Of a DNA stretch of 42,275 bases, positions 1 to 5,743 are shown piece by piece (positions within the stretch are counted from its first letter, which is position 1; every line of letters starts with the position of its first letter). Location of the stretch: the NCBI RefSeq assembly GCF_000378065.1, contig NZ_KB899172.1, positions 1-42,275 of the forward strand, in the 5' to 3' direction. The DNA comes from Porphyromonas gulae DSM 15663. GTDB taxonomy: Bacteria > Bacteroidota > Bacteroidia > Bacteroidales > Porphyromonadaceae. The position numbers and the translations under genes are program-made. Under the pieces are notes generated by a model. The model searched no databases and was not told the DNA's origin. It saw only the letters and a list, made by a program, of their open reading frames with translations.

Positions 1-1143
1 CTTATACCCGAAGCGAAGAGTTGTCCACCGACTATGACCGACTGCTCCTGCTCGGACGGGGCTATACAGGGCACGAGTATCTTCCCTGGTTTGGATTGGT
101 CAATATGAATGCCCGACTGTACGACCCTGCTATCGGACGCTTCCTCTCGCCGGATCCCTATGTACAGATGCCGGACTTCTCTCAAAACTTCAACCGCTAC
201 AGCTACTGCCTCAATAATCCCCTCAAGTTTACGGATCCTAGCGGAGAATTTGCTTGGGTTCTACTGGGGGTAGCGGCATTGGGAGGGGGGCTTAATTTCT
301 TTTCTAATAAAGAAAATATTGAAGGTTTTTGGGATGGGATTTCATCTTTTATTGTTGGTTCTGCCGCTGCAGTTGCAACGACAGTTGTGGCGGCGGCAGG
401 TGCCGGAATTTTAACAATAGCAAGCATTGCTGCCGGAATGGGGGCTTTAGTATCCACGAATAATGATATAGTTGCTCAAACCGGAAAAAATTTTAGTGGG
501 ATAGAGAACGTTGACTGGACGCAGGTTGGGAAAAATGCCTGCATTGGTGGTGTATCTGGATTTGCAGGAGGAAGTGCCGGTTATTGGGCACCCAATTCAT
601 CTCTGCTTGTAAACAACATCAATAGCCCTGTTCTTCGTTCGGCAGTAGTTTCGCCTTTAGCAGCTGGAGCGGGTCATATTGCAGGTGGTACTACGGCTGG
701 TTTGCTTCAAGGGCAAAGTTTGGATGTCGCATTCCCTAATTCATTTAACGGTATAGGACAGAGCATGGCAATAGGAGGAGCCATCGGAGTAGCCTCAACC
801 GTTGGCGTTTCTTATGCGAATGGAATAAGTCCGTGGACAGGAAAATCTTTAAATACCTCTATTTCGTCACAAGTTAAACCTAATGATTTAAATACTTATT
901 CGGATGTATTTACAGTGACTTCTGACGGTATAGTTCTACCAAAAGGTGCTTATATTCCTGATAATTTGATAGAAAATCCATACGGAAGATTTGGAAGTTA
1001 CGGAAAGATAGTGGATGGAAAATTTATTGAGATTGTACGAATAGATCCTCCAACTCTTCCGATATAAAGGTCCAAACACAAGTCATTTCCATCTAAATGG
1101 GAATAAAACACATATTTTCGACATTAACAGATGGCCTTGGTAG
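1..1143 (+). pseudogene. 3' part of RHS-repeat polymorphic toxin, frameshifted near C-terminus
   Basis: The frame is open from the window edge (codons from base 3), so the gene starts upstream. The first ~75 residues are the RHS-associated core: a YDRLLLLGRGYTGHEYLPWF-like start, then NARLYDPAIGRFLSPDP, NRYSYCLNNPLKFTDPSGE. This marks the end of the RHS shell, after which a variable toxin tip follows. A glycine/alanine-rich hydrophobic stretch comes next (about residues 75-150 and 170-270), as is common in pretoxin linkers. The in-frame stop is TAA at 1065-1067. Moving one frame over at 1063 continues cleanly as YKGPNTSHFHLNGNKTHIFD..RWPW to TAG at 1141-1143, an HxH-containing tail that looks like the genuine end of the toxin. 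I infer a short indel near 1062-1066. The toxin chemistry is not recognised. RHS proteins of this kind deliver C-terminal toxins to competitors. Confidence 0.85.
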
Positions 1144-1161
1144 CATAAATAAAACAAAAAA

Positions 1162-1527
1162 ATGGATTTTAATGATTTAAATTGGCATGATGCCGTAATC
1201 AAAAACATATCCATCGACAGAAGTAACCCTGGGAAAAGGGACATTATCCAATTAGATATAATCTGGACTAATGGGATAAAAAGTACAATAACTTTTAGCA
1301 ATGTATATTTCGCCAGTTTTGAAATGAATTTTGGCATAGTTGCTTTAGATTCTATTTTCAAAGCGTATTCAGAAGATCGAAACAGTTATTTGGTAAAAGA
1401 GCTTTATAAAAAATGGGAAGGATTGATCGATGATGTTGACTTAAATTATTATGAGATTGAAACCAATTCCACAAAAAGCACAATCGTAATCATTGCTCAA
1501 GAATTCAAGATAGATGACAATTTATGA
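1162..1527 (+). CDS. Probable immunity protein for the adjacent RHS toxin
   Basis: This 121-residue cytosolic-looking protein has no signal peptide and starts MDFNDLNWHDAVIKNISIDR. It begins 18 bases after the frame-corrected end of the RHS toxin, the standard place for the cognate immunity gene. The NWHDA start and the alternating hydrophobic pattern (IIQLDIIW, STITFSNVYFASFEMNFG) suggest a compact beta-rich fold. It resembles small immunity proteins found after RHS toxins in other Bacteroidota, but I cannot name the family with confidence. Its role in binding and neutralising the upstream toxin is inferred from position. Base composition is AT-rich like the rest of the island. Confidence 0.6.
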   Translation: MDFNDLNWHDAVIKNISIDRSNPGKRDIIQLDIIWTNGIKSTITFSNVYFASFEMNFGIVALDSIFKAYSEDRNSYLVKELYKKWEGLIDDVDLNYYEIETNSTKSTIVIIAQEFKIDDNL

Positions 1528-1564
1528 TTTAAGAGAGTCTAACAACGACTTTCTTAATTAGAAA

Positions 1565-1720
1565 GTTCAAGGGTAAAGTTTGGATGTCGCATTCTCTAAT
1601 TCATTTAACGGTATGGGACGGAACATGGCAATGGAGTAGCCTCAACCATTGGTGTTTCGTATGCGAATGGAATTAACCCGTGGTCGGGAAAGGATCTTGC
1701 AATGATAGATATGAGGTAGA
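1565..1720 (+). pseudogene. Degenerate copy of the RHS tip linker
   Basis: Bases about 1565-1700 repeat about 705-850 of the RHS gene with high identity (for example TTTGGATGTCGCATTC and the codons for NGI.PW). Relative to the first copy, about 13 bases are missing after CATGGCAAT near 1630, which breaks the frame. The end encodes SYANGINPWSGKD and then a stop. There is no start codon or complete frame, so this is an orphan fragment. It is what remains when a new tip is recombined into an RHS gene and the former tip is displaced downstream. Confidence 0.8.
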
Positions 1721-1731
1721 AGAATAAGAGC

Positions 1732-4247: not shown

Positions 4248-4259
4248 AAAACAAAAACA

Positions 4260-4676
4260 ATGAAAACGTTATTTATAGTAGCATGCTTGGAAATTATAGC
4301 ATTCGGTTGTTCTCCTATTATCAAAAGCAATTCTAATGATATGGAACAGAAAGCAATTAGTGATAATTTTCTGTTGAGTGAAACTGAGAGTGCATATCTC
4401 AATAGCATTTTTGAGGCTACTCGTAAAGATTTTGATTTTACCAATAAACAAGTAGGATTTATTAAAATTAGTGGAGAAAGAGGTAAAAATCATTACTTTG
4501 ATATGCAAGAAAAACATTCTGCCGATCCAAACTACCCCTGCGATAATGGCACATTGTATATTTTCAATGCTGCCCAAAAAGCCGAGAGCGGTGGTTATGA
4601 TGCTGCGATTGTGTATTGGTGTAAATTTTCACTCCGGACTGAAGACGTAGTCAAGAGGTTGAGAACGAAGCATTAA
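4260..4676 (+). CDS. Exported lipoprotein-like protein, paralog 2 of the family
   Basis: This is a 138-residue protein with signal MKTLFIVACLEIIAFGC. Cys17 follows 'AFG', a lipobox-like site. The body 'LLSETESAYLNSIFEATRKDFDF..KQVGFIKISGERGK', 'GTLYIFNAAQKAESGGYDAAIVYWCK' and the basic tail 'DVVKRLRTKH' matches the proteins at 3195 and 5283. It starts 12 bases after the broken effector domain ends, the normal place for an immunity gene, so it is the best candidate partner of that effector. Function is inferred from context only. Confidence 0.6.
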   Translation: MKTLFIVACLEIIAFGCSPIIKSNSNDMEQKAISDNFLLSETESAYLNSIFEATRKDFDFTNKQVGFIKISGERGKNHYFDMQEKHSADPNYPCDNGTLYIFNAAQKAESGGYDAAIVYWCKFSLRTEDVVKRLRTKH

Positions 4677-4713
4677 GTCAGTTTTTTGCTTAATAAATGA
4701 CAGATACATATTT

Positions 4714-5265
4714 ATGAATGATACGGAAACCGTGGTAGCAAAGATTATTTTTGGAGTAGATGAAGATGGTTTCGTCTATGGTTCGAAAGACCGGCCGGAT
4801 GCCTGCCCTGTTTGTGGGAACAGGATCAAAGATGTCTACGATCTACACTATAGGCTGAACAGGAAGTCGACCTTTATGTATACGTATGACGGCTACAATA
4901 TAGTATCGCAACCCTTCAAGGATTTTTGCGATGCAAATGGCTATCCGGGGCTGTCCTTTACCGAACTAACACATTATCCCGGCTATTACTTCTTTTCTGT
5001 AGAGAATGTATTCGAACTGGATCCCGATAAGATGGATTGCAGCGGCCATCATGATTGCTGTGACTCCGCTGATTCTCTTGCGCTACCATTGAAGAAAAAA
5101 AAGGAAGATTTTGAAATAGAATCCAATGATTTCATCTGCCGATCGGATGTCAGATTCGGGGATAAGGGCAAAAAGTTTTTTCTTATCATTGTCGGCCTCG
5201 AGACAGAAAAGAAGATGAAGCAGTTCGGATTGAAGAAAATACACTACGTCAAAGTAGTAAAATGA
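4714..5265 (+). CDS. Hypothetical immunity-like protein with CPVCG motif
   Basis: This is a 183-residue protein without signal peptide. Near residue 30 it has 'DACPVCGNRIKD', a zinc-knuckle half-site. Later 'MDCSGHHDCCDSADS' (about 108-122) could provide further metal ligands. The middle 'FKDFCDANGYPGLSFTELTHYPGYYFF' is aromatic-rich. The C-terminal half 'DFICRSDVRFGDKGKKFFLIIVGLE' looks like a small alpha/beta unit. Proteins with double CxxC motifs are common as immunity genes in RHS loci, so this role is inferred from context. The codon usage and GC content look closer to the chromosomal average than in the flanking paralogs, which suggests a separate origin. Confidence 0.5.
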   Translation: MNDTETVVAKIIFGVDEDGFVYGSKDRPDACPVCGNRIKDVYDLHYRLNRKSTFMYTYDGYNIVSQPFKDFCDANGYPGLSFTELTHYPGYYFFSVENVFELDPDKMDCSGHHDCCDSADSLALPLKKKKEDFEIESNDFICRSDVRFGDKGKKFFLIIVGLETEKKMKQFGLKKIHYVKVVK

Positions 5266-5282
5266 TTTTATAAGAGAGAACA

Positions 5283-5743
5283 ATGAAAAGCATATTGATT
5301 TCACTTTTTGTGATTTTTTCAAACACAAGTGCTGTGGCACAAATATACCATATGACAAACAAGTATAGTGATATTCCACAGGCAGTGCTGAATAATCTTG
5401 ACAAAATAGGTATTGACGATTCTCCCTTATTGAGCCCACAAGAAGCTGAGTATATTCGTTCTCTTGTGAGAGAAGAAATAGATATGAGTGGGAAAAAGAT
5501 TGCTTTTTTAACAGGTAACACGGGCAGTATAAGAGGCAATAAAAAAGATTTTTTTGACAACCTCAAAGGAGGGGATTATTCGAGGTTGCGCTATTTGGGG
5601 ACTTTATATGTTTTTGCTCTGTCTCAAAAAAAGAATTAGGTGGTTATGATGCTGCAGTCGTATGCGGAAGCAAGAAGTTGAATACCATGCAGGAAGTAAA
5701 GAGAAAAATTAAAAGCCACACAAGAAACAGAATCGGGGACTAG
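5283..5743 (+). pseudogene. Exported small protein, paralog 3, frameshifted near 3' end
   Basis: The intact frame from 5283 encodes 118 residues: signal peptide MKSILISLFVIFSNTSAVAQ, then 'LLSPQEAEYIRSLVREEIDMSGKKIAFLTGNTGSI..NKKDFFD' and 'LGTLYVFALSQKKN' before TAG at 5637. Just after the A7 tract at 5626-5632, the next frame continues 'ELGGYDAAVVCGSKKLNTMQEVKRKIKS' to TAG at 5741-5743, which is exactly the missing end of the family seen at 3195 and 4260. One A is missing relative to the expected frame. The gene is therefore broken, switched off by slippage, or mis-sequenced. Confidence 0.75.

What the first reader, a model, noticed from the sequence alone, without database searches (positions are those of the whole stretch)
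1..5743. RHS tip graveyard: stacked orphan toxin/immunity modules
One RHS gene end is followed by three separate remnants of RHS tip sequence (1565-1720, 3066-3191, 3623-4247), each located next to an immunity-like gene. The fragment at 1565 repeats 705-850 of the live tip almost base for base. This is the expected scar of repeated tip replacement and gives an ordered record of former toxins in this lineage. Several cargo proteins have no family that I recognise.
Basis: partly seen in the sequence, partly recalled or inferred. Interest (0 to 1): 0.75.

Follow-up and report, generated by a model that had tools for sequence, protein, structure and literature searches.

The report
Displaced RHS toxin tips, Porphyromonas
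A stretch of a Porphyromonas genome holds broken toxin tips and surviving antidote genes left behind when a bacterial weapon gene changed its warhead; the process is known from other bacteria, but here some discarded warheads are joined to the start of an antidote gene, and one is still attached to the weapon in another species.

Summary
The graveyard is real; the 'live tip' label and the 'ordered record in this lineage' are probably wrong. The window is one whole contig that begins inside a repeated RHS core. Contig overlaps and colinearity with the complete genome G006 place contig C54, with another tip and its immunity genes, between the RHS gene body (C6) and the window. So tip 1-1067 is probably itself displaced; its frame ends before the conserved toxin tail. 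In Porphyromonas loveana the same tip ends a full-length RHS gene: 98.2% identity over 2275 bp, against 74-84% in 7 of 7 other blocks of at least 1 kb. Tip, immunity gene, remnant 1 and the next immunity gene thus moved between species as one piece. Remnant 1 is a pre-toxin linker; remnant 2 a toxin tail; remnant 3 a broken toxin domain. This fits the published C-terminal displacement model and a known P. gingivalis rhs region. New detail: displaced cores start with 22 codons of an immunity gene, joined in frame at 8 shared bases, with a recombination breakpoint just after.

The parts
1..163 (+). Contig-end repeat R inside the RHS core, shared with contig C6 (163 bp, 100%) and in part with both ends of contig C54 (95 bp each, 100%)
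3..1067 (+). RHS core end plus tip A (pre-toxin linker and toxin domain); predicted displaced (orphan) tip; frame ends before the conserved last ~27 residues of the toxin; an intact attached copy exists in P. loveana
1162..1527 (+). Immunity gene of tip A (121 aa), predicted; a homologue directly follows the same toxin domain in G130 (L098) and in P. loveana
1565..1720 (+). Remnant 1: pre-toxin linker of another tip, toxin domain lost; one substitution in 213 bases from P. loveana
1732..2211 (+). Orphan immunity-like gene (159 aa); a relative in G239 (L083) directly follows an RHS tip that ends in a GIY-YIG-like domain (Pfam match below cut-off)
2275..3054 (+). Composite immunity-like gene: N half like Tai4 (Pfam match below cut-off), C half like a separate gene that follows an RHS tip in G110 (L092)
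3066..3191 (+). Remnant 2: C-terminal tail of a toxin like that of G044 (L042)
3195..3644 (+). Immunity-like gene with a signal-like N-terminus (by eye), first of three paralogues in the window
3645..4247 (+). Remnant 3: toxin domain in two frames, no core; intact relatives in G127 and G168
4260..4676 (+). Lipoprotein-like (by eye) immunity gene paired with the remnant-3 toxin family, second paralogue
4714..5265 (+). Second-hand copy of the immunity gene that directly follows the HNH-like tip on C54 and in G006 (protein 82% and 89% identical to the two full C54 copies)
5283..5743 (+). Third paralogue of the same immunity family, frame broken near 5636

Best explanation
Window 1-5743 is the downstream, silent part of an RHS polymorphic-toxin locus formed by C-terminal displacement. 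Shown by sequence: the gene body is on contig C6; the most parsimonious order is C6 - R - C54 (HNH-like tip and its immunity genes) - R - window - metK; the window's tip A is the attached tip of an intact RHS gene in P. loveana; displaced cores on C54 and in G006 begin with the first 22 codons of an immunity gene joined in frame at 8 shared bases. Inferred: a new tip-immunity module arrives between two core copies, recombines through both, and pushes the old tip downstream. Toxin pieces then decay, while immunity genes are kept because they protect against relatives that still use the old tips. Use is probably contact-dependent killing of other bacteria, with export tied to type IX secretion; that step rests only on a neighbouring gene with a T9SS sorting domain.
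For: Contig overlaps: C6 1-163 = window 1-163; C54 1-95 = window 1-95; C54 3547-3641 = C6 1-95, all 100%; the own-genome search found R sequence at no other place. The complete genome G006 has the same order: body, HNH-like tip, immunity genes, chimeric core with another tip, a third core, metK; C54 has one more immunity-lipoprotein pair than G006. P. loveana: tip A attached in a 2094-aa frame, 98.2% over 2275 bp, against 74-84% in 7 of 7 blocks of at least 1 kb (six further rows of under 650 bp range from 65 to 96%). Toxin-immunity neighbours elsewhere. Breakpoint: of 10 columns that separate the G006 chimera from P. loveana within 210 bases after the junction, C54 has the G006 base at the first (position 14) and the P. 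loveana base at the other nine (positions 81-189); the genome's own C6 core agrees with P. loveana at only 4 of those nine. G+C: seven immunity-like genes 28-42%, tip A 43%, core 53%, metK 54%; the C6 body is 45%, so the contrast with the body is small. T9SS sorting domain above cut-off in a small gene next to RHS in G006, P. loveana and G127; a gene of the same make-up on C6, seen by eye.
Against: No read or long-read check of the C6-C54-C26 order; a separate circle made of C54 could give the same overlaps. The attached tip was not seen joined to the body in G000 itself. Tip A, the C54 tip, the two displaced G006 tips and the remnant-3 family reached no Pfam or NCBIfam toxin match. The single-sequence fold of tip A was unusable (mean pLDDT 42.7). 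Many relatives of the cargo genes stand without a toxin: of six loci read for the 4260 family, three have none directly upstream. Retention of immunity genes by selection was not tested; the broken 5283 gene shows that some decay.
Confidence: 0.85

Rival explanations
1. One reading: tip A is the live tip of this genome, and everything after it is a lineage-specific, time-ordered scar.
For: Tip A is attached to core sequence at the window start and is attached to a full-length gene in P. loveana. C6 and the window share 163 bp, so a direct join is possible in principle.
Against: C54 carries R sequence at both ends and needs a place; its tip is the attached one in G006 in the same context. Tip A is frame-broken in the window. 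The block is nearly identical in another species.
Confidence: 0.1
2. C54 is an excised circle carrying the HNH-like tip, present beside an intact C6-window chromosome, as the circular-intermediate model would allow.
For: C54 has matching core ends. The published model proposes such circles (PMC2935791, passages).
Against: The same segment is chromosomal and in the same order in the complete genome G006. The window stretch 1-5743 found one weak 134-bp core match (74.6%, on a 1.77-Mb Prevotella replicon) in the plasmid collection and none in the phage collection; C54 itself was not searched there.
Confidence: 0.05
3. The small genes are unrelated cargo of a hypervariable spot, and the toxin scraps are incidental.
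For: None of the seven cargo ORFs reached a curated family cut-off. Several relatives stand without an RHS toxin next to them (L073, L074, L075, L084, L085, L091, L102).
Against: Direct toxin-immunity adjacency in other genomes for tip A/1162, the remnant-3 toxin/4260, the remnant-2 type tail with the same immunity family, and the C half of 2275.
Confidence: 0.04

Closest known systems
Rhs C-terminal displacement and arrays of dissociated tips in Enterobacteriaceae (Jackson et al. 2009, PMC2935791; passages read)
   Same: Core fragment plus tip lying downstream of an intact rhs gene; the same tip attached in one genome and displaced in another; tips of lower G+C than core
   Different: Here the core fragment starts with immunity-gene codons at a short shared word, and the breakpoint pattern fits recombination through a duplicated core; a circle is not required, nor excluded
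Orphan cdiA-CT/cdiI and rhs-CT/rhsI modules (Poole et al. 2011, PMC3150448; Koskiniemi et al. 2014, PMC3967940; passages read)
   Same: Orphan toxin fragments with their immunity genes; orphan and main toxins interchange between strains
   Different: Those orphans are reported mostly to lack translation initiation signals; three core copies here carry an in-frame immunity-gene start. Two of the three are frame-broken or interrupted further on (window, by the inferred contig order, and the G006 third core)
rhs region PGN_1816-1825 of P. gingivalis 381 (PMC6775972; passages read)
   Same: Four Rhs genes with a shared core, and a T9SS-cargo gene directly upstream of the largest; G006 shows a sorting-domain gene directly upstream of its 2085-aa RHS gene
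   Different: The passages read describe core and variable ends, not displacement, immunity arrays or transfer between species
T6SS immunity gene arrays of Vibrio cholerae (Kirchberger et al. 2017, PMC5361080; outline and abstract seen)
   Same: Old effectors replaced, old immunity genes kept
   Different: RHS core rather than a T6SS cluster; toxin scraps are still readable

Membership tests
Rhs displaced-tip (orphan) array | Lies downstream of a full-length rhs gene | tested here: met
   By contig overlap in G000 and directly in G006 and P. loveana; not shown by reads in G000
Rhs displaced-tip (orphan) array | Displaced fragment keeps core sequence of the same clade | tested here: met
   Met for tip A: C54 1-250 matches the P. 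loveana attached core at 99.6%, and window 1-2270 matches P. loveana at 98.2%. The three remnants keep no core
Rhs displaced-tip (orphan) array | Same tip found attached in another genome | tested here: met
   Tip A in P. loveana
Rhs displaced-tip (orphan) array | Each tip followed by its cognate immunity gene | tested here: inconclusive
   Adjacency elsewhere supports tip A/1162, remnant 3/4260 and the remnant-2 type tail. For remnant 1/1732, one of four loci read (of five other genomes matched) follows an RHS tip, with a GIY-YIG match below cut-off. Neutralisation not tested
Rhs displaced-tip (orphan) array | Orphan usually lacks a translation start | tested here: not met
   Three core copies start with ATG plus the first 22 codons of an immunity gene; the papers give this as usual, not as an absolute criterion
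Rhs displaced-tip (orphan) array | Toxicity and specific neutralisation | not testable with these tools
   Needs experiments
RHS protein | RHS-associated core domain | tested here: met
   TIGR03696 above cut-off in window 3-1064
T9SS-exported toxin | Export depends on the type IX system | not testable with these tools
   Only a neighbouring gene with a T9SS sorting domain was found (on C6 by eye); the RHS protein L034:4638-10892 itself gave no sorting-domain match

The most novel reading that the evidence does not exclude
In these Porphyromonas, insertion of a new tip module gives the displaced tip a ready-made start: the core fragment is fused in frame to the first 22 codons, and the upstream region, of an immunity gene. 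Displaced toxins could then still be made inside the cell without an export signal, act as resident toxin-antitoxin pairs, and keep their immunity genes from being lost. The modules would spread as linear core-tip-core DNA by double crossover, without episomal circles.
Probability: 0.25. Interest if true: 0.65.

Novelty: new member of a known kind. Interest (0 to 1): 0.42.

Why it matters
It shows tip displacement outside the Enterobacteriaceae, with a tip attached in one species and displaced in another, a toxin-immunity stack that moved between species as one block, and a mapped recombination breakpoint that lets the published circular-intermediate model be tested against a simple double crossover. 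The borrowed start makes a clear prediction: displaced tips may be translated. It also warns that such arrays cannot be read as the history of one lineage, and that contig ends can fall inside RHS cores and hide which tip is live.

Tried and rejected
Chance repeat: rejected by E-value. Remnant 2 as linker: weaker than the toxin-tail reading. Family libraries for the cargo: only matches below cut-off; Tai4 at E 0.005 was followed up. Of eight matched places outside this genome for gene 2275, seven fall in one half and one weak one (G306, 102-196) spans the middle. PDB sequence search gave nothing for the toxin alignment and two chance-level rows for the immunity alignment (E 0.32 and 0.94). The single-sequence fold of the intact P. 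loveana tip A domain was too poor to search; the second structure job was not used. Plasmid and phage collections: one weak core match and none. A cysteine-peptidase (permuted papain-like) nature of the remnant-3 toxin is my recollection from a His-then-Cys pattern; of the two only the Cys is invariant in alignment A1, so I do not claim it. 'HNH-like' for the C54 tip is likewise a recalled motif, not a database match. Paper searches; I saw no report of immunity-start fusions in those listings or in the passages read, which is not proof of absence.
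Full report
What is there. The window is contig C26 of a 62-contig Porphyromonas genome, whole. Bases 1-245 are RHS core, followed by tip A to a stop at 1067. Downstream are seven small ORFs and three toxin scraps, then metK at 5972 (metK named from its sequence by eye). The scrap at 1565-1720 repeats the tip A linker at 91% and 86% in two pieces. The three genes at 3195, 4260 and 5283 are paralogues; the last is frame-broken. None of the seven ORFs reached a curated family cut-off.

The start of the window is a contig break. C6 1-163 equals window 1-163; C54 carries 95 bp of the same repeat at each end; the own-genome search found it nowhere else. With C6 as the only way in and the window as the only way out, C54 fits between them. 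C54 holds an open HNH-like tip frame (name recalled; no toxin match), its immunity gene, a lipoprotein gene, a second copy of each kind, and then a core fragment. The complete genome G006 shows the same order on one chromosome, with one immunity-lipoprotein pair fewer, ending at metK. Its layout is like the one reported for P. gingivalis 381 in PMC6775972 (passages). So tip A is most likely displaced in this genome. Its frame also ends before a segment that is conserved in P. loveana and in G130.

Tip A is attached elsewhere. In P. loveana DSM 28520 it ends a 2094-aa RHS frame, followed by the same immunity gene, remnant 1 and the 1732-type gene. Window 1-2270 is 98.2% identical over 2275 bp. 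Seven of seven other shared blocks of at least 1 kb are 74-84% identical; six shorter rows (under 650 bp) range from 65 to 96%. The RHS body of P. loveana is 98.5% identical to G006 over 5840 bp. The block has moved recently between species; the direction is not known. Remnant 1 and its flanks differ by one substitution in 213 bases. It was therefore a remnant before the transfer, and the stack is not a history of this lineage alone.

Toxin-immunity neighbours. Tip A with a 1162-type gene: adjacent in P. loveana and in G130 (L098); of three other genomes matched in the order search, two loci were read and one (L099) shows no RHS. Remnant-3 toxin: five other genomes matched, and in three of the five (G127, G168, G044) a 4260-type gene follows directly; in G219 and G244 other ORFs follow. 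For the 4260 family, 13 other genomes matched; of six loci read (L071-L075, L077) three have the toxin directly upstream. Remnant 2 matches the G044 toxin tail (score 74, 0 of 2000 shuffles) and L092 (48, 1 of 2000), not L038, L039 or L041; the tip A linker scored 45 (2 of 2000). For 1732, five other genomes matched; of four loci read (L083-L086) one (L083) follows an RHS tip, with a GIY-YIG match below cut-off. Gene 2275-3054 is composite: seven of eight matched places outside this genome fall in one half. The C part follows an RHS tip related to the remnant-3 toxin in G110 (L092). The N part, which resembles Tai4, lies next to a Tae4-domain tip in G189 (L093), there upstream of the tip. For 4714, two other genomes matched; the one locus read (L102, G129) shows no RHS.

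Junctions. Three core copies, one on C54 and two in G006, begin with 22 codons of the immunity gene type that follows the HNH-like tip (counted as in window 4714) and switch in frame to core; the aligned letters share eight bases at the switch. After the junction, ten columns separate the G006 chimera from P. loveana. C54 has the G006 base at the first (position 14) and the P. loveana base at the remaining nine (positions 81-189); the genome's own C6 core agrees with P. loveana at four of those nine. The simplest reading is that a P. gingivalis-type HNH module, already carrying the fused end, recombined by homology into a locus that bore tip A. This fits a double crossover through two core copies. 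The circular-intermediate model of Jackson et al. (PMC2935791, passages) is not excluded.

How it works. Inferred from known Rhs systems (PMC3150448, PMC3967940, passages): the attached tip is a contact-delivered antibacterial toxin, the gene after it protects the producer, and displaced immunity genes may protect against relatives. Export may involve type IX secretion, since a small gene with a T9SS sorting domain sits next to RHS in G006, P. loveana and G127, and a gene of the same make-up, not scanned, is on C6; PMC6775972 had proposed that link. None of this was tested here.

Limits. Order in G000 is by overlap, not by reads. Only one genome per species could be compared. No function was assayed. 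The species of the window is not established; it is 90-95% identical to G006 in four of four blocks of at least 1 kb. The 'order' searches covered 295 to 324 genomes each, drawn evenly from a larger group, so absence from them means little.

Noticed in passing
L020, L019 and L021 (contigs C51, C52 and the end of C37 of the same genome): A second RHS system with a different core is also broken over several contigs (6 of the 9 core matches); five tip ends on C51 and C52 are each followed by a small ORF.
   Followed up: partly
window 15807-15984: A short repeat: 44 of the 49 matches in the complete genome G006 fall on this stretch; looks like a miniature mobile element.
   Followed up: no
L034:15726-15975: The third RHS core in G006 is interrupted by a 250-bp stretch that the other aligned cores lack.
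   Followed up: no
L035:18178-19851: P. loveana has a second, displaced RHS fragment whose tip matches the Tlde1 domain above cut-off; it keeps a longer piece of core without the immunity-gene start.
   Followed up: partly
L034:4162-4605, L035:7349-7786, L038:2360-2827, and C6: A small gene with one YD-repeat-like stretch fused to a T9SS sorting domain lies next to RHS genes in three other genomes and, by eye, in this one.
   Followed up: partly
window 2275-3054: Composite immunity-like gene whose two halves occur as separate genes elsewhere.
   Followed up: partly
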